In this document: positions 48,978-61,441 of the stretch, one piece after another
Layout of the letters: each line of letters opens with the position of its first letter
Position numbering within the stretch: the stretch's first letter is position 1
Source of the DNA: Desulfurococcus amylolyticus Z-533
GTDB lineage: Archaea; Thermoproteota; Thermoprotei_A; Sulfolobales; Desulfurococcaceae
Reading direction: 5' to 3'
DNA length: 64,000 bases
Assembly (NCBI RefSeq): GCF_000513855.1
Contig: NZ_KI911318.1
Coordinates: 328,087-392,086 of the forward strand
Notes under the pieces: generated by a model
Seen by the model: only the letters and a program-made list of their open reading frames with translations
Told to the model about the DNA's origin: nothing
The model's database searches: none
Program-made: the position numbers and the translations under genes

Positions 48978-49355
48978 TTAAAGCCTACCAACTCTACTGA
49001 TCTCTTCAATAGGCTCGTCAACAGCGTTAAGAACCTCCTTGTAGAGGCCTCTCGAGAATAGGGAGCGGCATATACTGCATTGATCCAGGTTTCTCACTCT
49101 TCCCTTCCTGAAATCCTCTACAGTATCATCAAGCAAGTTCTTAAGGCCTGGTATTCCAAGGACTGATTCATAATACTTAGGCTTCCTCTTTCCCGTTAAA
49201 GCATAGTTTACGGCTGACTGCTTCATACCTAGTGCTCTGGCTGCTTCAAGTTGTGTGAACCCTAGTTCTTTAACTAGCCTCACCGCTAGATAGGATTTAA
49301 TAACTGGCATTATCTTCCTGTTTAACACCATGCAGAAAGCCTTCAAACTCACCAC
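48978..49355 (-). CDS. XRE-type HTH transcriptional regulator with Cys pair (COG2522-like)
   Basis: A 125-residue protein. The HTH is LGFTQLEAARALGMKQSAVNYALTG (about residues 30-54; quoted core TQLEAARALGMKQSAVN), followed by GKRKPKYY. A CSIC pair near residue 94 could bind metal or sense redox state. This domain plan is known in archaeal regulators of COG2522. Targets are unknown. Start GTG 49355; TTG 49346 possible. Confidence 0.72.
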   Translation of the reverse strand: MVSLKAFCMVLNRKIMPVIKSYLAVRLVKELGFTQLEAARALGMKQSAVNYALTGKRKPKYYESVLGIPGLKNLLDDTVEDFRKGRVRNLDQCSICRSLFSRGLYKEVLNAVDEPIEEISRVGRL

Positions 49356-49445
49356 CTATAACCATGTTATTTAAATGCGACCAGGATATTAAAATAATTA
49401 GTTGTTCTTCACCTAGCCCGGGATTCATTATACTGGATAAAAACT

Positions 49446-49817
49446 CTAAGAGGTTTTACTTAGGATGCTGGATTCCAGGTCCATTATATAGTCTTCTTTA
49501 ACGTGTCCATCCAGGAATTCCACACCTTCCAGGCTTAATAGCTTCTTCTTCACATGGCTACCTCCTAGTGAAAAACCACCTATTCCTCCATCACTATAAA
49601 CGACCCTATGACAGGGGATGATAACCGGGTGTTTATTAATGGAGAGGCAGTAAGCTACTACCCGGGGATGTATCTTGAGTAGCCTAGCTATACTCGAGTA
49701 TGATGTTGTTTTACCGGGGGGTATGATCATAGTCAACGTATAGACAGCTTCACATATATCTCTCATCGACGCTTTATATGCGGTGACCTCTCTGCCTTTG
49801 ATCTCGATTACTATCAA
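49446..49817 (-). CDS. ogt: Methylated-DNA-protein cysteine methyltransferase
   Basis: A 123-residue DNA-repair protein that removes alkyl groups from O6-alkylguanine. The active-site motif IIPCHRVV holds the acceptor Cys (about residue 70), preceded by the winged-helix TTSYSSIARLLKIHPRVVAYCL and followed by the GGFSLGG loop. It lacks most of the usual N-terminal domain and is shorter than typical archaeal Ogt (about 150-170 aa), but the active-site domain is complete. Confidence 0.88.
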   Translation of the reverse strand: MIVIEIKGREVTAYKASMRDICEAVYTLTMIIPPGKTTSYSSIARLLKIHPRVVAYCLSINKHPVIIPCHRVVYSDGGIGGFSLGGSHVKKKLLSLEGVEFLDGHVKEDYIMDLESSILSKTS

Positions 49818-49850
49818 GGCTTACACCTTTAAGGGCTTCTAACAGGATTA

Positions 49851-50074
49851 AGCGTTTCCCTGCTGATGTTTTGTTAGCGGGGTTAGCCCCTGGCCTGGGC
49901 TCACTTGCTTCACCTAGACTGCATGGGGCTCGGTCGAGCCCAACGCCGCAGGGCCCCATCCGGGTTTCTAGCACGACCCTCACCGCACAGCGGATCACAG
50001 GAGCTCTAAGTACCCTAGAGATATCTACAGGTATTTAAAATTATCTATAAATCCACAGCACCCTATATTAAATA
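49851..50074 (-). repeat. Structured 224-bp element, copy B
   Basis: On the minus strand this matches copy A (58427-58651, plus strand) with seven substitutions and one indel. The element has an AT-rich head (TATTTAATATAGGG; TTTTAAAT) that could be a promoter, then a chain of hairpins ending in CCCGCT...AGCAGG. Two substitutions fall in the loop of a CCGC/GCGG hairpin and one turns a C-G pair into U-G, while two weaken stems. A short ORF across it is a by-product. It fills most of the ogt-moaB gap. Non-coding RNA or IS605-type right end are the options. Confidence 0.7.
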
Positions 50075-50218
50075 CTATTCAACACATTCCTCGGGATCCG
50101 TATCTATATCTGCTCTCTTACTCTACGCTGAGCGATAAATTCATGTAAAGTAGGAATAGTGTTGATACAGCTAGGTTAATTAAACATGTAGTGGTTCTAG
50201 ATATCAATGGTGTTGAAT

Positions 50219-50701
50219 ATGGCTGTGAAATTCCATATTGTAGTGGTTAGTGATAGGGTTGCCAGCGGGGAATCTATGGATGTTAGCGGTGAGAAAGCCG
50301 TTGACTACATTACTGCGAGGGGGCATATGGTTACAGGGAAAACCGTGATAGGTAATAATTATAGAGACATAGTCAGGGTAATACGTGAGGCTAATAGCAA
50401 AGTCGTATTATTCATTGGTGGTACAGGCCCCAGTCCCAGGGATATAACCGTGGACGTTATTGAATCGCTTGCATGGAGAACGTTACCCGGCTTTGGTGAA
50501 GCCTTTAGGAGAATATCGTATGAGAGAGAGGGGTCGAGAGCGTTACTGTCTCGTGCAGGCCTCTATATACTGCCGGATGGGAGAATAGCTGTTGTGCTAC
50601 CAGGCTCCCCCAGCGCGCTCGAGATAGGTTTAAAGATACTAATGGATATTATTGAACACCTCGTTGAAGAAGTGGAGAGATTTGAGGGTCCGCATAGGTG
50701 A
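50219..50701 (+). CDS. moaB: MoaB/Mog-type molybdopterin biosynthesis protein
   Basis: A 160-residue MoaB-fold protein. FHIVVVSDRVASGESMDVSG opens the fold, and FIGGTGPSPRDITVD (about residues 65-80) and LPGSPSALEIGLK are the molybdopterin-binding loops. MoaB/Mog adenylylates molybdopterin before metal insertion; in hyperthermophiles it serves tungsten enzymes. No other cofactor genes are adjacent. Start ATG 50219 behind GGTG; ATG 50207 also in frame. Confidence 0.88.
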   Translation: MAVKFHIVVVSDRVASGESMDVSGEKAVDYITARGHMVTGKTVIGNNYRDIVRVIREANSKVVLFIGGTGPSPRDITVDVIESLAWRTLPGFGEAFRRISYEREGSRALLSRAGLYILPDGRIAVVLPGSPSALEIGLKILMDIIEHLVEEVERFEGPHR

Positions 50702-50707
50702 TTAGGT

Positions 50708-51436
50708 ATGGCTGGTTGCCTGGCTATAAGTTTCGATATATGGGGTACGCTTGTGGATCTCGATAAAACCCTTGATCACCTCTCAGAGATAGCTTCTAAT
50801 AGGCTGGGTTTAAGCATCGATGAAGCGCGGAAAGCAATATACGTATCACATGAGGAGGCCCGGAAGCTCAGGAGGTTCACGCCGAATATTCCACCACTTG
50901 AGCTCATTGCACGTGGCAAAGAGATAATCGCGGCAAAGCTCTCAACCAGCCTCAATACTGTTGACTCCATCCTAATGGAAGCGTTCACAACCGTTGAACC
51001 GGGATCGATAATCTACCCTGATGTTATACCGGTTTTAAGTAAGCTCCATGATGAAGGCATCTATATGGGTGTAGTGGGCAATGTTCTATTCTGGCCCAGT
51101 GTTTACACAATGATCATATTGGATAAAACCGGGCTCTCAAAATACTTTAGGGTAGCCGTATTCTCGGACATTATAGGCTATAGCAAACCAGATAGGGAGA
51201 TATTCCTGGAATTCGCTAAGATCTCTGGTTTCGAGCCAAACAGGGTAATACATGTAGGAGACAATGTTATCGAGGATGTTGGTGGAGCATTGTCATCGGG
51301 ATTCCTGGGTGTATTGATAAATAGGAGGTCTAATAGGAGTATATATGTATGGGAGCTCAACGCGGCCGTAATTAACGACATGAGGAACCTAGTAGACCTC
51401 TACAGGGAGGCATCGCTGAAGATATGTCGTAAATAG
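50708..51436 (+). CDS. HAD-superfamily hydrolase
   Basis: A 242-residue HAD enzyme. Motif I is ISFDIWGTLVD with the second Asp replaced by Trp (D-x-W instead of D-x-D), motif II near GVVGNVLFW, motif III Lys in YSKPDREIF and motif IV HVGDNVIEDVGGA. D-x-W is unusual because the second Asp normally acts as acid-base in phosphatases, though some haloacid dehalogenase-like members lack it. It follows moaB by seven bases. Confidence 0.8.
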   Translation: MAGCLAISFDIWGTLVDLDKTLDHLSEIASNRLGLSIDEARKAIYVSHEEARKLRRFTPNIPPLELIARGKEIIAAKLSTSLNTVDSILMEAFTTVEPGSIIYPDVIPVLSKLHDEGIYMGVVGNVLFWPSVYTMIILDKTGLSKYFRVAVFSDIIGYSKPDREIFLEFAKISGFEPNRVIHVGDNVIEDVGGALSSGFLGVLINRRSNRSIYVWELNAAVINDMRNLVDLYREASLKICRK

Positions 51437-51463
51437 TGTATTGATTTACTGGTGATCGAGAAA

Positions 51464-52864
51464 ATGATGAGGATAGAGGAAAACAGGGAGAGAATACTTT
51501 ACGGGTCCATTGGTAGAACACTCCTATGGCTTGGGCTACCATTAATGGTTGTCCAATTAGTGAACGTATCATACAATATAGTGGATACATATTGGCTAAG
51601 CCGTTACAGTGAGATAGCCTATGCTGTACCAAGGCAGGTCATGCCAACTTTCATGTTATGGAACTCGATAGCGCAGGGATTAATGGCAGCGAATCTAGCA
51701 TTGATAACTCAATTGATAGGTGCGCGCAGGTATGATGAGGCCAGGAAATACGTGTCATTCTTTGTCTCGGCAACGCTTCTCATCAATTCTGTGGTTTCTA
51801 TAATATACTTTATTCTAAGACCCATGATATTCAGCTATATAGTGCGGACACCGCCTCTCCTCTACAATGATACCTTAACTTATTCCGGGATAATCACGCT
51901 GGATATAGTTTTCTCAGCATTCACTCTAACCTACTCGACAATTCTTCAATCAATAGGTGATACACGTACACCTGCATCAATAAACTTCGGAGCCGCATCC
52001 ATGAATATGGTTTTAGACCCCATATTCATTCTAGGGGTTGGAATCAATGGATCGATGTTGATACCGCCTATGGGGGTTGCCGGAGCAGCGTACGCTACAA
52101 TACTTTCAAGGTTCATCGGACTATTACTCCTGTATGATAGATTGAATAAGAAATACCCATATCTAAAGCCCAGGTTAACACTTAAAATAGAGTTGGACTG
52201 GCTTGCTAAAAACCTGAGGATCGGGGCTCCAGTGACGTTAATGATGGCTTCAAATAGCTTGGCATTTATGTTTCAGAATGGCCTTATAAACCAGTTCGGT
52301 GAGTATGTTGCTGCTGCAGCAGCCATAGGGCTTATAATGATGGATCTAGCTGATGCAACGTTATGGGGTTTCACAAGCAGTGTCGCAGTTATGGTGGGAC
52401 AGGCACTTGGGGCTGGATTAATTGATAGGGCAAGGAAGGTTGCCTTTAAATCAATGCTCTATATAGGGGTATCAACACTGATAGGGTCATCCATAGTTTA
52501 CATGTTGAGGGAGGCATTCATCTCAGTGTTCACCGATAACCAGGTTATATTATCTGAGGCAGATAGATTCATCACAGTTTTCCTACCATCAATAGTGTTC
52601 TTCGCGTTATTCTTCATAGGCATGAGTGTTGGCAGAGGTTCAGGGCATACAATGGTTCCAACAATAATGGGGATAATTCGTCTATGGGGCATAAGAATAC
52701 TATTAGGCTATATACTAGCATTCACCATAGGCCTCGGTAGTCTAGGGGTATGGATCTCAATGAGTTTAAGCAACGTGGTTGCCGGCCTCTTAATGATAAT
52801 ATGGGTTGCTAGAGGTGGGTGGGCTATCCCAGTTATAAAGACCAGGGAGCCTGAAACGGTTTAA
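51464..52864 (+). CDS. MATE-family multidrug/cation efflux transporter
   Basis: A 466-residue protein with 12 predicted membrane helices in two similar halves, each starting with the MATE pattern (LLWLGLPLMVVQLVNVSYNIVDTYWL; LAKNLRIGAPVTLMMASNSLAFMF, only parts diagnostic). It exports organic cations or other compounds using Na+ or H+. ATG 51464 behind GGTGAT is preferred to GTG 51452. It lies 27 bases beyond the HAD gene. Confidence 0.86.
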   Translation: MMRIEENRERILYGSIGRTLLWLGLPLMVVQLVNVSYNIVDTYWLSRYSEIAYAVPRQVMPTFMLWNSIAQGLMAANLALITQLIGARRYDEARKYVSFFVSATLLINSVVSIIYFILRPMIFSYIVRTPPLLYNDTLTYSGIITLDIVFSAFTLTYSTILQSIGDTRTPASINFGAASMNMVLDPIFILGVGINGSMLIPPMGVAGAAYATILSRFIGLLLLYDRLNKKYPYLKPRLTLKIELDWLAKNLRIGAPVTLMMASNSLAFMFQNGLINQFGEYVAAAAAIGLIMMDLADATLWGFTSSVAVMVGQALGAGLIDRARKVAFKSMLYIGVSTLIGSSIVYMLREAFISVFTDNQVILSEADRFITVFLPSIVFFALFFIGMSVGRGSGHTMVPTIMGIIRLWGIRILLGYILAFTIGLGSLGVWISMSLSNVVAGLLMIIWVARGGWAIPVIKTREPETV

Positions 52865-52947
52865 CAGTATTCTATCACTCTATAATAGTTAAATCCGATG
52901 CTTAATATCACATTTTCCACTTAGTTATGGTTTAGGGGGATCCCGAA

Positions 52948-54150
52948 ATGCCCAGAGTACTAGGTATGGATCCTGGCTCTAAGAGTATTGATATATGTGG
53001 TCTCTGCGATGGGAGAATATGCTTCGAGAAATCAATAGATACCGTTGAGGCGAGTAAGAATCCCCTCAGAGTAGTGGAGCTTGTTGAGGGCTTCCCAGGG
53101 GTTGATCTAATAGCTCTCCCCTCGGGCTATGGTGTAGAGCTCACATATCTGGATCATGTAGAGGACAACATGTTGGAGGACTGGTATTACACTTTCATAC
53201 TAGCCACCACCAAGGAGGAGATAGTGGAAGGCTTAAACAGGAATAATATTGGGGCATTCATCTACGATGCAATGGGGAAGATAGTGAGGGAGTTGAAGAA
53301 GAGAAGGGTTAGAGGGATGTTCATTCCAGCAGTAATAAACCTTGAAACAATCCCCCTACATAGGAAGCTCAACAAGATCGATATGGGTACAGCTGATAAG
53401 CTAGCCGTTGCAGTCCTAGGGATACACGAGGTATCTCAGGAGCATAAAATACCCTATGATAGAGTTAACTACATACACGTAGAGATGGGGTTCGGCTATA
53501 ACGCAGTGATAGCAGTTAGGAATGGGGTCATAGTTGATGGTGTCGGCGGCACCTTAATGCCTGGCCCAGCATTTCTAACTTCAGGTGCACTGGATCTGGA
53601 AGTAGTACAGGCCGTAGGGTTATTCAGCAAAACAGATGTGTTTTCCACTGGTTGTAATGTATTAACTAATACTATGTCACCGGAGGAATTCATATCTAGG
53701 ATAAGCGAAGATCCATTAGCAGAGATCTGCTTCGACGCGATGATTGAGTCTATTGTAAAGACGGTTTACTCTATGATCCCGCTGGTGGGCGAGGTGCGTG
53801 AGATACTGTTATCAGGCAGGGTTTCAAGAAACCCTGTCGTTAAGGATTACATAGAGGATAAACTCGGGGACTTGACGAGCATCAGGGCGATGAAGGGGTT
53901 GCCGGATGCATCCATAGTAAAAGAGACCGCACAAGGATACGCTGTAATAGCTGATGGCATAGCTGGCGGCGTCTTCAAAGAACTAGTTGATCACGTTGGA
54001 ATAAGAAGTGCTAGGGGCACCTCTCTTGACTACATAGTTCACCCGAGATTCATGAAATCGAAGCTTGGAAAGAAGTTCGCTGAGTTAAGGAGGCTAATGC
54101 ATGGGGAAGCATTTAATATAAGATGGTGGAGTAGCCTTGGCTCTAATTAG
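52948..54150 (+). CDS. DUF1464 family protein (ASKHA-like kinase fold)
   Basis: A 400-residue protein with the ASKHA opening RVLGMDPGSKSIDICGL (phosphate-1-like loop), a YIHVEMGFGYNAVIAVRNG block (about 175-195) and GGTLMPGPAFLTSG. DUF1464 proteins were annotated as possible butyrate kinases; experimental proof is lacking. It overlaps the DUF447 gene by 14 bases and is therefore in an operon with DUF447 and β-RFAP synthase, which hints at a pterin-linked role. That link is inference. Confidence 0.75.
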   Translation: MPRVLGMDPGSKSIDICGLCDGRICFEKSIDTVEASKNPLRVVELVEGFPGVDLIALPSGYGVELTYLDHVEDNMLEDWYYTFILATTKEEIVEGLNRNNIGAFIYDAMGKIVRELKKRRVRGMFIPAVINLETIPLHRKLNKIDMGTADKLAVAVLGIHEVSQEHKIPYDRVNYIHVEMGFGYNAVIAVRNGVIVDGVGGTLMPGPAFLTSGALDLEVVQAVGLFSKTDVFSTGCNVLTNTMSPEEFISRISEDPLAEICFDAMIESIVKTVYSMIPLVGEVREILLSGRVSRNPVVKDYIEDKLGDLTSIRAMKGLPDASIVKETAQGYAVIADGIAGGVFKELVDHVGIRSARGTSLDYIVHPRFMKSKLGKKFAELRRLMHGEAFNIRWWSSLGSN

Positions 54151-54760
54151 GGAGGGGATACTCTACGAGGCGATAATATCTCTACTAGATGATCTGGACA
54201 AACCCTATGCAACACCATCGGGGTTCTGGAAGTCAAAGGGGAGAATACTGGTGAAGTTCTACAAAGGGTTTAAAACACATGAGTTATTAGTGGCTGTGAA
54301 AAACCCAGTGCTCAACATTGTCAGGGATCCGTTTCTATACTATAGGACAGCTTTTAAGGCGGAATCCAGTGGGTTGACCCCAGAGGACTACATGGTTGAT
54401 GAGGTGAGTGGACGTGTTTTCCTGAGGAATGCTGAAGCCTACTTGCTACTAGACCTTATTAGAATCGTGGATCATGGGAAATATAGCTTATTTGAGTATG
54501 ATTTAAGGGAAATAAGAGTGAATCCACATATCCACCTGGTGCTCGAGCCATACTCAAGGTGCTATAGCTCTCTCATAGAGATGATTATATACACTACCAA
54601 GATAAGAGCACGGGATCAGCTCTCAACCACAGAGCTTGAAACAGCTTTAAGAAGTATTGAGTATTCATATAATGTGGCAGTGAAGACCTGTATGGATAGT
54701 GCTTACATGGATTTAGCCAATAAGATTAGAAAGGTGGTGGAGGATTGGCTAGGGAAGTAA
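54137..54760 (+). CDS. DUF447-like protein (flavin-reductase split-barrel suspected)
   Basis: A 207-residue protein from TTG 54137 behind GGTGGAG. REGILYEAIISLLDD at the start and PVLNIVRDPFLYYRTAF (about 56-72) match the pattern of DUF447, whose members fold as flavin-binding split barrels and in methanogens often neighbour methanopterin-related genes. The overlap with DUF1464 upstream and β-RFAP synthase downstream (16 bases) makes a tight three-gene operon. Confidence 0.65.
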   Translation: MALIREGILYEAIISLLDDLDKPYATPSGFWKSKGRILVKFYKGFKTHELLVAVKNPVLNIVRDPFLYYRTAFKAESSGLTPEDYMVDEVSGRVFLRNAEAYLLLDLIRIVDHGKYSLFEYDLREIRVNPHIHLVLEPYSRCYSSLIEMIIYTTKIRARDQLSTTELETALRSIEYSYNVAVKTCMDSAYMDLANKIRKVVEDWLGK

Positions 54761-55677
54761 AGATTAACACACCTTCGAGACTGCACTTCGGCATGGTTAA
54801 CCCGTTTATCAGGGGAGCTAGGAGATATATCTCAGCAGGGGTTGCAGTATCATACCCCAACAACGTTGTTATCGTTAAGGAGGGAAGCGAATTACGCGTC
54901 GAGGGCTGCAGATCCGATGAGGTGTTTACCAGAATAAAAGACTTCGCCGTTAAACATGGTTTAAAAGGAATCATTGAAATAAGGGAATGCATACCCAGAC
55001 ACATAGGACTAGGTTCCACAACGCAACTAGTGCTCGCAGCTGGATATGGGCTTGCATTAGTGAATAACCACCTGATAGATCCTGTCGAAATAGCTGTTGA
55101 GACAGGACTTGGCAAATACTCCGGTGTTGGAACATATGTGTTTAAACATGGTGGATTCGTGGTTGACATGGGTAGATCCGAGTCCACAGCATTCCCGCCC
55201 CTCCTAACCAGGCTTGAATTCCCTGAGGAATGGGTTTTCATCATTGCAATACCTTCAGGTAGCGGGCTCGATGAGGAGAGGGAAGACAGGATTTTCGCTG
55301 AAGAAAACTGGAATATTCCCGTAGAATTAACATGGAAGGCCTCATATCATCTAATCGAGTTATCCTCAGCTGTGGCTGAAAGGGACTTCGACTCATTCGT
55401 GAAGGCGTTGACAGCTTTGCAGGAAACCGTTGGCTCTATGTTTTCCAGATATCAGGGCGGTGTTTTCTCGGTTAATTCTGCTAGGGCCATTAAGCTACTC
55501 AGAGAAAACGGTGTAGAAGGGGTTGGACAAAGCTCGTGGGGTCCGGCTGTCTATGGGGTTGTAAAAGGATTAGATGAGGCTGAGGCGATCTTGGAGAATT
55601 TGATGCCAAGACTCGACGGGAAGGTATTCATTACTAGACCACGTAATAAAGGGGCCGAGGTTGTGGAGGAAAAATAA
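54745..55677 (+). CDS. mptG: β-ribofuranosylaminobenzene 5'-phosphate synthase-like GHMP enzyme
   Basis: A 310-residue GHMP-superfamily protein. INTPSRLHFGMVNP is the typical opening, PRHIGLGSTTQLVLAAG is the GHMP phosphate loop (about residues 88-104) and FIIAIPSGSGL is present downstream. β-RFAP synthase joins 4-hydroxybenzoate or p-aminobenzoate to PRPP, the first committed step to methanopterin or sulfopterin-type C1 carriers. Such cofactors are known in some Crenarchaeota. Start TTG 54745. Confidence 0.82.
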   Translation: MAREVKINTPSRLHFGMVNPFIRGARRYISAGVAVSYPNNVVIVKEGSELRVEGCRSDEVFTRIKDFAVKHGLKGIIEIRECIPRHIGLGSTTQLVLAAGYGLALVNNHLIDPVEIAVETGLGKYSGVGTYVFKHGGFVVDMGRSESTAFPPLLTRLEFPEEWVFIIAIPSGSGLDEEREDRIFAEENWNIPVELTWKASYHLIELSSAVAERDFDSFVKALTALQETVGSMFSRYQGGVFSVNSARAIKLLRENGVEGVGQSSWGPAVYGVVKGLDEAEAILENLMPRLDGKVFITRPRNKGAEVVEEK

Positions 55678-55686
55678 CGCTGTAAT

Positions 55687-57195
55687 CTAGTTTATGGCTA
55701 TAGCTATTCCCTCGCTACGTGGGTCGCCGGCAAGTATTAATTTCTCATCGTCTAGGATGGCTACATGTACATGTCCATGGCTTCCAAAATACTCTACTTC
55801 TTCGATACTTATGCCTCCAACCGTATTAGCCTCAAGTGGTTTCTCTAAGACGAGTCTTTGGCTTCCACGGGGTTCCACATAGATGAATCGGGGGGCTGCA
55901 ACTGCTTTTACGGGGTCCATTCCATATACGAACATGTTTTCATATACCCTTAGATGTAGTTGGGGCCTGTAGTCTCCTCCTACACAGCCTATAATATATT
56001 TTTTATCGTCTTCAACTACGCCTAGAATTGATAACGTGTGGAGGGGTAATTTCCTGGGTGCAGGGCTGTTAGGTAATCCATGCTCCTTCGCGAATCCTAT
56101 TCCTCTATTCTGCACTGGGAAGCCGCCCATCATTAGCCCTGAGCCGAATGGATGGAAGAGGCTTTGAATGAATCCGATCAATGATTCTCCATCGGAGACT
56201 ATGAAGAATGTTGTATCTCCTCCATGTTTTACACGTGTACTGCTTTGACTTACACTGTGTTCGATAAGCTTCTTTACCCTACTATATCTCAAATACTCGT
56301 TTACATCTATCTCCATGTAGTCGGGGTCACCTAGATAGATGTCTCTGAATGTGTAGACGATATCAACTGGTTTACTCCAGGCGCTAGCCCGCTGAGGATC
56401 ATGGAACCCGTACCTGGATAACTCTTCCTCATAGAGCGCGCTGATCAGCTGGAGCGTTGATGCTCCTTGAGTGTTTGGCGGGAGCTCATAGAGTATTCTT
56501 CCTTCCACCTCTAGCCTGAGGGGATCTACTTTAAAGCCTTCGTGGGTCATAAGGTCTTCAAGCCCTGTATTAACTCCTTGATCCTGTAGTTCCCTGGTTA
56601 GTTCCTCAGCTAACTCCCCCTGGTAGAATTCTTCCCAGCCCCTCGACGCGATTAGCCTAAGGGTTCTAGCAGCATCTTTATTGGTGATTTTGCTGCCTAG
56701 TTTAACCCCTTTATAGTATTTAGCCCACTTGAACCCGGATAATTCTTTTTCAACCGCCTCAATGGATCTCGCCAGGGTATATCCAGCGTTAAATCCATTA
56801 TATGCCAGTGATATTGCTGGCTTCAATAGTGTCGCTAAATCAAGTGTTCCATACTCCTCGTTAACCATACCCCATAGGTATACGAGCCCGGGGATCGTTA
56901 CTGTTAGAGATCCTCTTAGAGGTTTTTCCCTAATGTATTCATCGGCGTTGAATCCGCTGGGCGAGCGGCCTGAGGACGCGTAGGCAACAACCTTGTCTCC
57001 TACGAAGCCTAATAGGAATCCATCGCCTCCGGGCCCGCCCATTTGGGGCTGTACAACCGATAAAACAGCGCTAATGGCTATGGATGCATCAAATGCGTTG
57101 CCTCCTTCCTCCAGCACGTCTAACCCGGTCTTTACAGCTAAGGGATGGTCAGCTACTACACCCTTAAATCCTATGCCGAGCTTAGCTACGGGCAT
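55687..57195 (-). CDS. γ-glutamyltransferase family protein
   Basis: A 502-residue GGT-like Ntn hydrolase. The self-processing/catalytic Thr lies in KHGGDTTFFIVSD (about residue 330), and PQMGGPGGDGF near residue 50-60 and GSGLMMGGFPVQNRG carry the family glycine loops. No signal peptide is seen, so it would act in the cytoplasm, where hydrolysis of γ-glutamyl or related amides is possible; several archaeal relatives act on other substrates. AGGAGGTC directly precedes the ATG. Nine bases after the CoA-transferase gene; one operon. Confidence 0.85.
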   Translation of the reverse strand: MPVAKLGIGFKGVVADHPLAVKTGLDVLEEGGNAFDASIAISAVLSVVQPQMGGPGGDGFLLGFVGDKVVAYASSGRSPSGFNADEYIREKPLRGSLTVTIPGLVYLWGMVNEEYGTLDLATLLKPAISLAYNGFNAGYTLARSIEAVEKELSGFKWAKYYKGVKLGSKITNKDAARTLRLIASRGWEEFYQGELAEELTRELQDQGVNTGLEDLMTHEGFKVDPLRLEVEGRILYELPPNTQGASTLQLISALYEEELSRYGFHDPQRASAWSKPVDIVYTFRDIYLGDPDYMEIDVNEYLRYSRVKKLIEHSVSQSSTRVKHGGDTTFFIVSDGESLIGFIQSLFHPFGSGLMMGGFPVQNRGIGFAKEHGLPNSPAPRKLPLHTLSILGVVEDDKKYIIGCVGGDYRPQLHLRVYENMFVYGMDPVKAVAAPRFIYVEPRGSQRLVLEKPLEANTVGGISIEEVEYFGSHGHVHVAILDDEKLILAGDPRSEGIAIAIN

Positions 57196-57204
57196 GATGA
57201 CCTC

Positions 57205-58389
57205 CTATGGATAATATATGATGCCCGCCTCTTTAAGCCTGCTTATTTCCTCCGGGGTGTATCCAAGCTCCTGAAGTATCTCTACTGTGTGTTCCCCGAG
57301 TCTTGGTGGGTGTAGTTTCGAGTTGTATTTTTCATTATTAAAATATCCTGGCTCGCTTAACTGGGGGATCTCGCCTAGTACTGGATGATGTATCTTATAG
57401 ACTATTCCCTGCTCGCTAACATACCTGTCTTGAAATACCTCGTCTAGCTCATATACTGGTGCAGCAGGAACACCAGCGTCCTCCAGCTTCCTAAGCCAGT
57501 TATCCCTTGTATCGATCTCGAATATTGATTGAAGCATGTTAACAAGGGCCTCTCTATTAGCCACTCTATCGGCATTTGTTCTGAAGCGCGGATCATTTAC
57601 AAGGTCTTCCCTGCCAATAGCCCGGCATAGAGAACCCCAGAGCCTATCGTTTGCTGCTGCCACGATGAACCATTTCCCATCCCTATCTCTGAAGGCTTGG
57701 TAAGGCACCATGGAGGGATGGGCGCTACCCATCCTTCTTGGCTTTCTACCTGTCGTGAGGTACATTATTGGTAGGTAGCACATTGAGAATATTGCAGTGT
57801 CATACATTGGAACCTCTATTTTAACAGGCCTTTTACCTGCGTAGAGGGCGCTTAAAATATATATTGAGGACATTAATCCAGTGATCACATCAAATAACGC
57901 AAAACTAACCCTCACAGGAGGTCCCCCCTCCTCGCCAGTGGACATCATGAGGCCTGACATGCCTTGTAGAACCAGGTCATATGCTGGCTTATCCTCGTAT
58001 ATGCTTCCCTGTCTAAACCCCTTAATACTCAGATATATGATCTTGGGATTGATTTTTACGAGGCTTTCATAGTCGACCCCAAGTTTCTCAGGCACCCCGG
58101 GCCTATAGTTCTCTATCACGACATCGCTTCTCTCTACTAGCTTGTAGACTATCTCCCGCCCCTTAGGGTTTTTCAAGTCCACTACAATACTCTTCTTCCC
58201 CCTATTTATCGAGAGATAGTAAGCGCTCTCCCCCTTGATGAACGGGGCCCAGCTCCTGGTTTCATCTCCATGTGGGGCCTCAACCTTTATTATCTCGGCT
58301 CCTAGGTCAGCTAGCACCATGGAGGCAAAGGGCCCGGCAAGTGTATGGCTTAGATCAAGTACCTTGATATCCTTTAACAACATTTTCAC
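57205..58389 (-). CDS. Family III CoA-transferase (CaiB/BaiF)
   Basis: A 394-residue CoA-transferase. LDLSHTLAGPFASMVLADLGAEIIKVE is the family opening (parts diagnostic), VVIENYRPGVPEKLG follows, and the catalytic Asp is expected in FALFDVITG (about residue 165). These enzymes move CoA between carboxylic acids such as succinate, formate or carnitine derivatives. Paired with the GGT-like gene downstream in one operon, a pairing without an obvious shared pathway. Start ATG 58389. Confidence 0.87.
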   Translation of the reverse strand: MKMLLKDIKVLDLSHTLAGPFASMVLADLGAEIIKVEAPHGDETRSWAPFIKGESAYYLSINRGKKSIVVDLKNPKGREIVYKLVERSDVVIENYRPGVPEKLGVDYESLVKINPKIIYLSIKGFRQGSIYEDKPAYDLVLQGMSGLMMSTGEEGGPPVRVSFALFDVITGLMSSIYILSALYAGKRPVKIEVPMYDTAIFSMCYLPIMYLTTGRKPRRMGSAHPSMVPYQAFRDRDGKWFIVAAANDRLWGSLCRAIGREDLVNDPRFRTNADRVANREALVNMLQSIFEIDTRDNWLRKLEDAGVPAAPVYELDEVFQDRYVSEQGIVYKIHHPVLGEIPQLSEPGYFNNEKYNSKLHPPRLGEHTVEILQELGYTPEEISRLKEAGIIYYP

Positions 58390-58426
58390 GCCCTCCGTTC
58401 ATAATTCGATTTGTGATGTAAAACGA

Positions 58427-58651
58427 TATTTAATATAGGGCTGCTGTGGATTTATAGATAACTTTAAATTCCTGTAGATATCTCTAGGGTACTTAGAGCT
58501 CCTGTGATCCGCATTGCGGTGAGGGCCGTGCTAGAAACCCGGATGGGGCCCTGCGGCGTTGGGCTCGACCGAGCCCCATGCAGTCTGGGTGAAGCAAGTG
58601 AGCCCAGGCCAGGGGCTAACCCCGCTAACAAAACATCAGCGGGGAAACGCT
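58427..58651 (+). repeat. Structured 225-bp element, copy A
   Basis: Plus-strand partner of the element at 49851-50074 (about 96% identical). Hairpins by eye: CTCTA/TAGAG (58482/58494), CCGC/GCGG (58509/58516), GGGCC/GGCCC (58523/58547), CTGC/GCAG enclosing GGGCTC/GAGCCC (58551-58583), CTGGG/CCCAG (58585/58603) and CCCGCT/AGCGGG (58621/58638). CTTTAAAT at 58462 is a possible TATA box. Homology ends abruptly at GGGAAACGCT. It occupies most of the CoA-transferase/surface-protein gap. Confidence 0.7.
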
Positions 58652-58705
58652 GGGATGTTATATAGAGCTATAGAGCTTAGGTTTATAAGTAGGGGTTGAT
58701 GATGT

Positions 58706-59500
58706 ATGATAGCTAGAATACCTTTACTTCTACTCTTTACCACCATGGTATTTTCAAGCATCATCAGTGTATACACTGGCTCTGTCACCGTTAATATAGC
58801 TGGGCTTTATGCTTCGATAATATATGATCCATTAGAGGATAATGGGATGTTCGATCTAAACATCACTCTTTCAAGTAGGAGTGAAACCCCTGTTGAACTG
58901 ACGCTGGATAATCCATTTGATCCATCTGTAAGCCTCTCCTTGGTCTCAGTGGATTGTGAGCCAGGTGGAAACGTTGTTGTAGATTATGGTGTCGATAGTA
59001 TCACTATATTATTTAACAATACGAGCTGGGTGATGTTGTACTTCACTATAGAGGGCTTCATGGAGTCCAGTAGCCTTGGGTCTTACGTTGCCTACATAGA
59101 CTTAACTGGTTATAATGATGTAGCGAACCTATTGTTAACGCTTCAAATACCATATGGATACCAGGTAAATGTAATGCCTTCAACAGGTGTCACTGTATCG
59201 CAGGGTAATGAATCAATAATAGTGAACTTATCCCAGGCGCTTCTCTACACTGTAACAACATGGGTTTCTGTAACAGAGGCTACCACATCACCCACGGCAA
59301 CTATGACGACAATTACTAGCAGCACCACGTTAACTACCATTGGTACATCGGCTACAGCTATTACTACGTCTACAGAGCCAGCTACTGAATCGATCCCTGT
59401 AACTCATGGAGTATTAGGCAGTATCTTACCATTGGCGATAGGTATAATAATTATAGTGATGATCATTGTAATACTGGTTTTCTATGGGTATAGAAGATAG
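58706..59500 (+). CDS. Cell-surface protein with Ser/Thr-rich stalk and C-terminal anchor
   Basis: A 264-residue exported protein: signal peptide (RIPLLLLFTTMVFSSIIS, residues 4-21), a β-rich domain with N-x-S/T sites (about 25-190), a Thr/Ser stalk of about 45 residues likely O-glycosylated, and a C-terminal membrane helix (LPLAIGIIIIVMIIVILVF) ending in basic YRR. This is the usual form of archaeal S-layer-associated or binding proteins. No specific family is recognised. Confidence 0.68.
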   Translation: MIARIPLLLLFTTMVFSSIISVYTGSVTVNIAGLYASIIYDPLEDNGMFDLNITLSSRSETPVELTLDNPFDPSVSLSLVSVDCEPGGNVVVDYGVDSITILFNNTSWVMLYFTIEGFMESSSLGSYVAYIDLTGYNDVANLLLTLQIPYGYQVNVMPSTGVTVSQGNESIIVNLSQALLYTVTTWVSVTEATTSPTATMTTITSSTTLTTIGTSATAITTSTEPATESIPVTHGVLGSILPLAIGIIIIVMIIVILVFYGYRR

Positions 59501-59544
59501 TTTCCTCTCTTAATGGACTTTTTAAATGCCTATCCTATATAGGT

Positions 59545-60630
59545 TCAGCCACTACACAACAAGTTCTAAATAAGAACGACGAGGCTTGGAGGTCATTCTT
59601 CCCGCTACTAAAAGCTAAGAAAGAGGGAAAACCACCGTCATTCATGACAGGAGTTAACCCGCCGGGGTATAGGAAGAGAGGTGGTAAGAGAGTTCTATGG
59701 GTTGTTCTGAGAAATGATCAGTATAAGTTTGAGGATGACTATGTTATATTGAAGGGTTTGAGGGCTCTCGGGTCTATCAGTGTTAGGTACTCTGGGAGAA
59801 TACACGTCTTCGGGAAACAAGGTAGGGCTGAGATATGCTACGACCTTGATGAGAAGAAGAGTGGTATATGCATATATCCTTCGAAGTTGAGGAGAAGATC
59901 GTTAGAGACAAAATGATTAAAGTACCTGTGAACCCTCCTGGAAATAAGAGTGCTGGGATAGATATTGGCATTAACAATCTCTTGGCTGTATATGTTGAGG
60001 ATGGTTCTGCATTGCTTGTAAGCGGGAGACCTCTAAAAGCTATTAGTTTCTATTGGAGGAACCGTATCTCAGAATATCAAAGCATGCTAAACAGATATGG
60101 GTTCAAGACGTCTAGGATGCTTAGGAAGATGTATAAGAAGTGGAGGAAGCAGATTAGAAGCTATATCAACTGGGCTGTGGGAAATACTGTTAAATGGCTC
60201 TATCTGAGAGGTGTATCAGAGGTAGTTGTTGGGTACCCGAGGTATATTGTTCAAGAGCCGGGGGAAGAGCCCTATGGTTAACTTTGAGATAGCCCATGTC
60301 TGGAGCTATAGATACCTGCTCAGAAGAATAACCGAGGTAGCAGAAGAATACAGGATCAAAACAGAGTTTGTAAGCGAGGAATATACGTTAACAACATGCC
60401 CATTATGCAGAACTCATGATAATCATAAGAGGATAACTAGAGGGTTGATCAAATGCTTCATACATAACAAGGTATTCAACGCATATCTTGTAAGAGCATA
60501 CAACATACTCTTGAAGAGAAAACCCATAGCCCCGAGCCCCGCGTTAAGCTGGGTAGGGGTAGCGCGCCTAAGACCAGGCGCGGGGCTGAACCAGGCTAGA
60601 GGAGGTGTAGCCCCAACCTCCCTACCCTAA
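59545..60630 (+). pseudogene. TnpB (IS200/IS605 family) pseudogene
   Basis: Three successive frames together give a TnpB without its N-terminal part: TTQQVLNKNDEAWRSFF onwards, a frameshift near 59870-59910, then AGIDIGINNLLAVYVEDG (RuvC-I Asp present), a second frameshift near 60240-60280, then VNFEIAHVWSY and the zinc-finger region TTCPLC...CFIHNK. RuvC-III normally reads NAD; here it reads VFNAYLVRAYNI, with Asp changed to Tyr, so even the frame-corrected protein should be nuclease-dead. No tnpA is near. Confidence 0.85.
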
Positions 60631-60668
60631 AGGGACCCCTCGCTCTTTAGGGCGAGGAGGAGGTCAGA
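60531..60668 (+). mobile_element. Right end of the tnpB element, ωRNA-type hairpins
   Basis: The TnpB C-terminal coding region overlaps a structured 3' end: AGCCCCGCG/CGCGGGGCT (60535-60543/60579-60587) and CCTCGC/GCGAGG (60638-60643/60652-60657), closing with GAGGAGGTCAG. In TnpB systems the guide RNA is made from this part of the element. The tip is shared with the remnants at 11600 and 32768. The left end was not found. Confidence 0.6.
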
Positions 60669-60682
60669 TAATTTGTTGCCCA

Positions 60683-61441
60683 CTATTTTTTCTCAACCTT
60701 TAATATCACCGGCTTAACTCCAGTGTTGTCAATTGCGTAGAGAACCCATCCATGTCTATATGTCACACCCTTTATCTTCCTTATCATTATCTGGCGTACC
60801 TGTATAGGTAGCTGTAGGGATAACCCCTCTTCTAGACCGCGTGTTTCAATTATACCGTCAACTAGGTGTTCTATAGTGTACAGGTATTCTTTAAAGCCTT
60901 CTGTGGAGGTGTGGAGCGTTGCTATTATAGGTATTTTCAGTGTCTTAGAGATATTGGCTCTTAGAAGCTTGATGAACTCCATGAACCGTGTGGGATCGAG
61001 TGAGATCATTGCTTCGTTTAATGAATCTATAATGATTAATCCCTTACCACTTAACCTCGTTGAATCCAGTACACGTAGGATAGCGTTGGCAAGGTTCTCA
61101 GGGTTCCGTGGATCAACATCTTCTACTACGAGTGGATGAATCCTTCCTTTCTTGCCTCTGATCAGATAACTGAATCCATCTATTAAGAGTAGCCTAGAGG
61201 AGATATTGTCATCTATTCTTAAACCAAAGGACTCTAATTGCTCTATTATAGTTAAAGGATCATCGTCTAGACAAACATATATCACTGGTTCATTGTTCTC
61301 TATGATGTTCTTAGCTATATTGGCTACTATCACGCTTTTCCCGGAACCTCCTTCCCCAGCTAACACTATAAACGAGTTCCTTGGGACGCCCTCGGGTAGT
61401 ATGTAGAGGAACAAGTCCAGTGTAATAAGGATCTTCTCCAA
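60683..61441 (-). CDS. KaiC-like RecA-superfamily ATPase
   Basis: A 252-residue single-domain ATPase. Walker A is GEGGSGKS (about residues 29-36), the catalytic-glutamate-like region is DDDPLTI, and Walker B is KGLIIIDSLNEAM (about 131-143). KaiC-like and GvpD-like proteins of archaea have this plan; roles range from signalling to regulation of motility. There is no second domain. The neighbouring dehydrogenase operon is divergent. Start ATG 61441. Confidence 0.72.
   Translation of the reverse strand: MEKILITLDLFLYILPEGVPRNSFIVLAGEGGSGKSVIVANIAKNIIENNEPVIYVCLDDDPLTIIEQLESFGLRIDDNISSRLLLIDGFSYLIRGKKGRIHPLVVEDVDPRNPENLANAILRVLDSTRLSGKGLIIIDSLNEAMISLDPTRFMEFIKLLRANISKTLKIPIIATLHTSTEGFKEYLYTIEHLVDGIIETRGLEEGLSLQLPIQVRQIMIRKIKGVTYRHGWVLYAIDNTGVKPVILKVEKK

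What the first reader, a model, noticed from the sequence alone, without database searches (positions are those of the whole stretch)
49851..58651. A 225-bp hairpin-rich element present twice in inverted orientation
49851-50074 (minus) and 58427-58651 (plus) match with seven substitutions and one indel, in intergenic spaces. Homology starts in an AT-rich promoter-like head and ends sharply. The body folds into at least six hairpins. Two substitutions lie in one loop and one gives a wobble pair, but two weaken stems, so selection on structure is suggested, not proven. It could be a small RNA family, a TnpB-type ωRNA end, or a MITE. The inverted pair brackets 8.4 kb that could flip by recombination.
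Basis: partly seen in the sequence, partly recalled or inferred. Interest (0 to 1): 0.75.

Follow-up and report, generated by a model that had tools for sequence, protein, structure and literature searches.

The report
Gene-less IS607 elements carrying guide RNA
The repeat is a tiny jumping element that has lost both its genes but kept its two ends, a probable promoter and the guide-RNA scaffold of a TnpB (Cas12-like) nuclease, and the same stripped-down design arose several times in hyperthermophilic archaea, which suggests that such elements survive by borrowing other elements' enzymes.

Summary
In detail: the two copies differ by 7 substitutions and 1 indel. The genome holds five near-full copies plus fragments. 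The element proper is about 212 bp (58439-58650 +; 49852-50062 -). It is a non-autonomous derivative of IS607-type transposons. It keeps (i) the left end with a TATA-like box, (ii) an island around a TGATCCGC..GCGGTGA hairpin from inside tnpB, and (iii) the tnpB 3' end/right end, i.e. the presumed omegaRNA scaffold, ending exactly where the flank (the would-be guide) starts. tnpA, most of tnpB and a 90-115 nt spacer are gone. Sixty-seven matches to the hairpin-linker-scaffold signature occur in 22 of 229 genomes of the class, none for a reversed control. They interleave with tnpB-bearing elements in a tree, so the architecture arose repeatedly. The RNA fold covaries across 39 copies, but single-copy folding is unremarkable and some copies here have broken stems. 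The published Staphylothermus marinus 'MITEs' follow the same logic. Best reading: trans-mobilised elements reduced to promoter + omegaRNA that use TnpA, and probably TnpB, of other elements. Trans use of TnpB is inferred, not shown. Flipping of the 8.4 kb is unsupported.

The parts
58439..58650 (+). Element copy 1 (about 212 bp), left end to right end
   Evidence: Boundaries from 41 left and 67 right ends in many genomes; 5 copies in genome
49852..50062 (-). Element copy 2 (about 211 bp)
   Evidence: 7 substitutions + 1 indel to copy 1; G001 and G002 have only 93 and about 147 nt where this genome has about 404-468 nt
58439..58470 (+). Left end with TATA-like TTTAAATT at about 58463-58470; equivalent to the tnpA promoter region of full IS607 elements
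   Evidence: TATA-like box 20-28 nt from the left end in 37 of 43 heads, 0.6 expected; full element L015 has the same left end before tnpA
58505..58522 (+). Hairpin TGATCCGC..TGCGGTGA, an island from inside tnpB, presumed 5' domain of the omegaRNA
   Evidence: Retained in the deletion derivatives compared; 21-58 nt blocks in pairwise comparison with full elements
58542..58650 (+). omegaRNA scaffold = former 3' end of tnpB plus transposon right end
   Evidence: 95% identical over 59 nt to a decayed IS607 (L012), 77% to the intact one (L015); covariation
58620..58644 (+). Terminal stem CCCCGCT/AGCGGGG just before the right tip AAACGC
   Evidence: Stem arms change together across the family; 3' arm broken by one G>A in copy 2
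58651..58670 (+). Predicted guide of copy 1 (flank immediately after the right end)
   Evidence: Inference from TnpB biology; flanks are random beyond the boundary
49832..49851 (-). Predicted guide of copy 2
   Evidence: As above, inference

Best explanation
Each copy is a deletion derivative of an IS607-type transposon (serine-recombinase tnpA plus tnpB) that moves with TnpA supplied in trans. Shown: internal deletions removed both genes but left the left end with its promoter-like box, a hairpin from within tnpB, and the right-end scaffold whose fold covaries across the family; this architecture arose more than once. Inferred: the box drives a short transcript that starts near the hairpin, reads through the scaffold and runs into the flank, making an omegaRNA whose guide is the insertion site. 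A TnpB from an autonomous relative, where present, binds it and cuts alleles that lost the element, so that the copy is restored by homologous repair. That would explain why the RNA part is kept although transposition by a serine recombinase should need only the ends.
For: Parents: intact IS607 at G000:C1:236674-238579, TnpA with HTH_17 + Resolvase domains and TnpB matching TIGR01766/guided_TnpB. Right end 95% identical over 59 nt to a decayed IS607 in the same genome. Signature hairpin + short linker + GATGGG: 67 hits in 22 of 229 genomes, reversed control 0. Sharp ends. Gene-less and full elements intermix: 10 changes, 0 of 200 bootstrap trees with one clade, at least 3 changes forced by well-supported branches; G060 gene-less element sister to G060 full element, 98/87. 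Pairs compared show the hairpin as an island between two deletions. Covariation in 39 copies: 84 double-change cells against 24.5 shuffled and at most 11 when slid; within one head type found only in gene-less elements 19 against 7.8. TATA-like box 31-43 nt before the hairpin in 30 of 43 heads, 0.8 expected. Carriers more often hold a close TnpB: 12/22 against 15/207, p about 2e-7.
Against: No RNA data. Single-copy folds are no better than shuffles. G.U and A.C are equally common, so the helices give no strand signal, though tnpB-bearing elements behave the same. At least three of the five copies in this genome carry unpaired stem changes. Four signature-bearing genomes have no TnpB of this family at E 1e-10, and several only remote ones; some of these are incomplete. 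In this genome the closest parent is dead. Insertion core and an exact empty site were not resolved. The co-occurrence test ignores relatedness of genomes.
Confidence: 0.6

Rival explanations
1. Plain non-autonomous IS607 derivative: the right-end sequence is kept only because TnpA needs it as DNA (binding sites, palindromes) or by recent common descent; no guide RNA function remains.
For: Some copies in this genome have broken stems. G.U is not favoured over A.C. The terminal-stem loop inverts between copies, a sign that hairpin-mediated template switching could create paired changes without RNA selection.
Against: The hairpin lies about 140 nt inside the scaffold boundary of the parent, away from the ends, and is kept in lineages that interleave with full elements while the spacer is removed. 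TATA-like boxes sit at a set distance before the hairpin.
Confidence: 0.3
2. Host-domesticated small RNA family (for example a guide for a nuclease-dead TnpB acting as regulator).
For: Solo RNA scaffold with promoter-like head, intergenic.
Against: Copies sit at different, species-specific places with sharp transposon ends and random flanks; absent at the same place in congeners; tnpB-bearing relatives keep D189, E324 and D376, a candidate catalytic triad.
Confidence: 0.05
3. Recent simple duplication of an intergenic segment.
For: The two window copies share 11-12 bp of left flank beyond the element.
Against: Five near-full copies plus relatives in many genomes with the same boundaries.
Confidence: 0.02

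Closest known systems
Staphylothermus marinus ~260-nt MITEs (PMC2678158, 2009; genome G023 here, identified by its size from memory)
   Same: Many copies in a Desulfurococcales genome, tied to IS607-assigned single-ORF elements. Checked here: they too carry a TATA-like box followed by an omegaRNA-like right end shared with the 3' end of local tnpB genes.
   Different: Different TnpB type (about 22% identity), different sequence, described without reference to a guide RNA and said to be flanked by inverted repeats; no TGATCCGC hairpin seen.
IS607-family autonomous elements with reRNA (ISXfa1, PMC10711439; RAGATH-18-type, PMC11061315)
   Same: Serine recombinase TnpA + TnpB, guide RNA at the right end reading into the flank.
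   Different: These repeats have lost both genes; no matching Rfam family in the loci searched; the cognate TnpB is archaeal, lacks the zinc-ribbon cysteines and has G where the usual RuvC-II glutamate would be, with E324 as likely substitute.
IS200/IS605 PATEs (palindrome-associated, non-autonomous derivatives; term found in PMC7290912, details from memory)
   Same: Gene-less derivatives that keep the ends of TnpB-carrying transposons.
   Different: PATEs belong to Y1-transposase IS605 elements; here the parent is IS607. My searches of the held library found no paper on IS607 versions with omegaRNA.

Membership tests
IS607-derived non-autonomous element | Both ends shared with a tnpA(serine recombinase)+tnpB element | tested here: met
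   Left- and right-end blocks align to full elements; TnpA has HTH_17 + Resolvase domains
IS607-derived non-autonomous element | Insertion at a shared dinucleotide core | tested here: inconclusive
   GC occurs at both tips and flanks are otherwise random, but no exact empty site was found
MITE (strict) | Terminal inverted repeats | tested here: not met
   Ends GGCTGCTG... and GCGTTTCC... do not match
MITE (strict) | Target-site duplication | tested here: inconclusive
   No duplication beyond the possible 2-bp core was seen
MITE (strict) | Short, gene-less, multicopy, internally deleted | tested here: met
   212 bp, 5 copies, deletions against parents
TnpB omegaRNA | Lies at tnpB 3' end and ends at the transposon boundary, followed by a variable guide | tested here: met
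   Overlap with tnpB 3' end in full elements; boundary then random flank
TnpB omegaRNA | Conserved covarying fold | tested here: met
   RNAalifold on its own predicts the same helices, the middle and terminal ones in shorter form
TnpB omegaRNA | Transcribed and bound by TnpB | not testable with these tools
   No RNA or binding data
RAGATH-18 / other Rfam family | Reaches curated score | tested here: not met
   Only a tRNA in 8 element-bearing loci at gathering threshold; nothing over the element in window 49000-61000 at E<=1

The most novel reading that the evidence does not exclude
Guide-RNA-only transposons: independent lineages of IS607 elements converge on promoter + 5' hairpin + scaffold + site-specific guide and persist as parasites of both TnpA and TnpB, so that one TnpB serves many dispersed guides, a trans-acting arrangement like a scattered guide array.
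Probability: 0.45. Interest if true: 0.75.

Novelty: new variant of a known kind. Interest (0 to 1): 0.58.

Why it matters
Why transposons keep RNA-guided nucleases is an open question. Gene-less elements that repeatedly discard everything except ends, promoter and guide-RNA scaffold are a natural test: if the RNA part is under selection in elements that make no protein, the RNA-guided homing function is valuable in trans. The recurrent deletions also mark which parts of an archaeal IS607 omegaRNA may be dispensable (the RuvC-III coding spacer) and which are kept (the 5' hairpin), which is useful for defining a minimal guide.

Tried and rejected
Exact empty sites in congeners and in genus g7: intergenic spaces not alignable, so only absence was shown. 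Strand inference from G.U against A.C: no preference, and the tnpB-bearing elements behave alike, so not informative. Single-sequence folding: not better than shuffles. Rfam: no match to the element. Viral contigs: 10 matches to the degenerate signature, not examined one by one and treated as chance; none to a scaffold pattern. Genome-contig scan: many bacterial hits to the degenerate signature, treated as chance; the archaeal ones were used. PDB profile search with the TnpB alignment: none at 1e-3. Inversion of the 50.1-58.4 kb segment: not supported.

Full report
Observation. The match is real and as described: 7 substitutions and 1 indel between 58427-58651(+) and 49851-50074(-). The genome (1,307,099 bp, one contig) has five near-full copies, one left-end-only piece and more distant relatives. 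One congener (G001) has the size of Desulfurococcus mucosus DSM 2162, known to me from memory. The congeners G001 and G002 lack the 49851 copy: intergenic 93 nt and about 147 nt where this genome has about 404-468 nt.

Origin. The more distant relatives are the 3' ends of tnpB genes. An intact parent type lies at G000:C1:236674-238579. It has a TnpA with HTH_17 and Resolvase domains (IS607-type serine recombinase) and a 428-aa TnpB that hits TIGR01766 above its cut-off and guided_TnpB below its cut-off. No Y1 transposase was found in the genome. The closest parent is a decayed, rearranged element at 1073.5-1074.2 kb whose right end is 95% identical over 59 nt. The repeat is thus an internally deleted IS607 element. 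Its left end corresponds to the region just before tnpA in the full element.

Boundaries. Over 41 left ends and 67 right ends in many genomes the flanks are random up to (A/G)|GGCTGTT and after GGGGAAACGC|. There are no terminal inverted repeats. GC occurs at both tips and may be the recombination core, but no empty site resolved it.

Family and distribution. Among 229 genomes of the class, the signature hairpin + 4-34 nt + GATGGG occurs 67 times in 22 genomes, with zero matches to the reversed control pattern. Named carriers include Desulfurococcaceae, Acidilobaceae, Ignisphaera, Thermogladius and one Thermoproteaceae bin. In tnpB-bearing elements the same hairpin starts about 141-149 nt before the scaffold; in the gene-less elements it starts about 33-55 nt before it.

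Recurrent origin. In a tree of 51 gene-less and 18 tnpB-bearing right ends the two kinds intermix: 10 changes, at least 3 forced by well-supported branches, none of 200 bootstrap trees with one clade. A G060 gene-less element is sister to the G060 full element (98/87), and those of G098/G101 group with G098/G101 full elements. Pairwise comparison shows blocks (left end, hairpin island of 21-58 nt, right end) separated by two deletions; the left-end block was weak or not detected in some pairs. The second deletion removes about 90-115 nt of RuvC-III coding sequence. The tree rests on 142 columns and its bootstrap had not settled, so the number of origins is rough.

Structure. On 39 gene-less copies, five helices are paired in 92.1% of cells. 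There are 84 double-change cells (24.5 in shuffles, at most 11 with slid partners) and 17 pairs with double changes. RNAalifold predicts the same helices on its own, the middle and terminal ones in shorter form. Within one head type found only in gene-less elements, 19 double-change cells against 7.8 shuffled remain, though exchange with full elements is not excluded. Against this, single-copy folding is not better than shuffles, G.U is not favoured over A.C, and copies in this genome carry broken stem pairs.

Promoter. 37 of 43 heads have a TATA-like box 20-28 nt from the left tip (0.6 expected), and 30 of 43 have one 31-43 nt before the hairpin (0.8 expected). With the usual archaeal spacing (own knowledge) this predicts a transcript starting near the hairpin. 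The heads are related to one another, so these counts are not independent.

TnpB in trans. Gene-less elements occur more often in genomes with a TnpB of this family (18/22 against 72/207) and with a close one (12/22 against 15/207) (counts taken). Four carriers have none at 1e-10, some of them incomplete genomes. The TnpB family keeps D189 and D376, has G where the usual RuvC-II glutamate would be, and a nearly invariant E324 that may replace it, as in the Ealt arrangement described for Fanzors and related TnpBs (PMC10711439). Nuclease activity is therefore plausible, not shown.

Known relatives. S. marinus was reported in 2009 to have 14 MITEs of about 260 nt alongside IS607-type ORFs (PMC2678158). 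In about half of that genome I recovered a multicopy repeat that fits them. It has a TATA-like box followed by a right end shared with the 3' ends of local tnpB genes, so the same promoter + omegaRNA logic recurs with a distant TnpB type. That paper described similarity to regions upstream of the ORFs; the part I find shared overlaps the 3' end.

Flip. A congener (G002) has colinear gene order over 49.6-57.2 kb, and the order break in G001 lies inside the bracketed interval. Nothing here suggests that the inverted pair has recombined; PCR or long reads could still test it.

Verdict. Identity as a non-autonomous IS607 derivative carrying the omegaRNA end: about 0.93. Trans use of TnpB as the reason for keeping it: about 0.6 at most. 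No RNA evidence was available.

Noticed in passing
L027 vs L042; L013 vs L014/L015; L029/L034: The loop of the terminal right-end stem is inverted (reverse complement) between otherwise near-identical elements, with the stem unchanged; three apparently independent cases. Probably hairpin-mediated template switching.
   Followed up: partly
window 59644-60680 (+): A broken tnpB of another type (PF01385 and PF07282 pieces in separate frames) with an Rfam HgcC match (41.9 bits, below gathering) over its 3' end, suggesting that HgcC-like RNA there is a TnpB omegaRNA.
   Followed up: partly
window 58427-58438 and 50063-50074: Only the two window copies share 11-12 bp (TATTTAATATA) of left flank outside the element; unexplained (same target motif or flank carried along).
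   Followed up: no
alignment A2 (L015 TnpB and relatives): The cognate TnpBs lack the zinc-ribbon cysteines and have G in place of the canonical RuvC-II glutamate, with nearly invariant E324 as candidate replacement.
   Followed up: partly
L276-L315 (G023, S. marinus by size): The published S. marinus MITEs carry an omegaRNA-like right end shared with local tnpB 3' ends.
   Followed up: partly
G000:C1:258864-258892 (-), L016: A solo left end of the element next to a gene end, without the rest.
   Followed up: no
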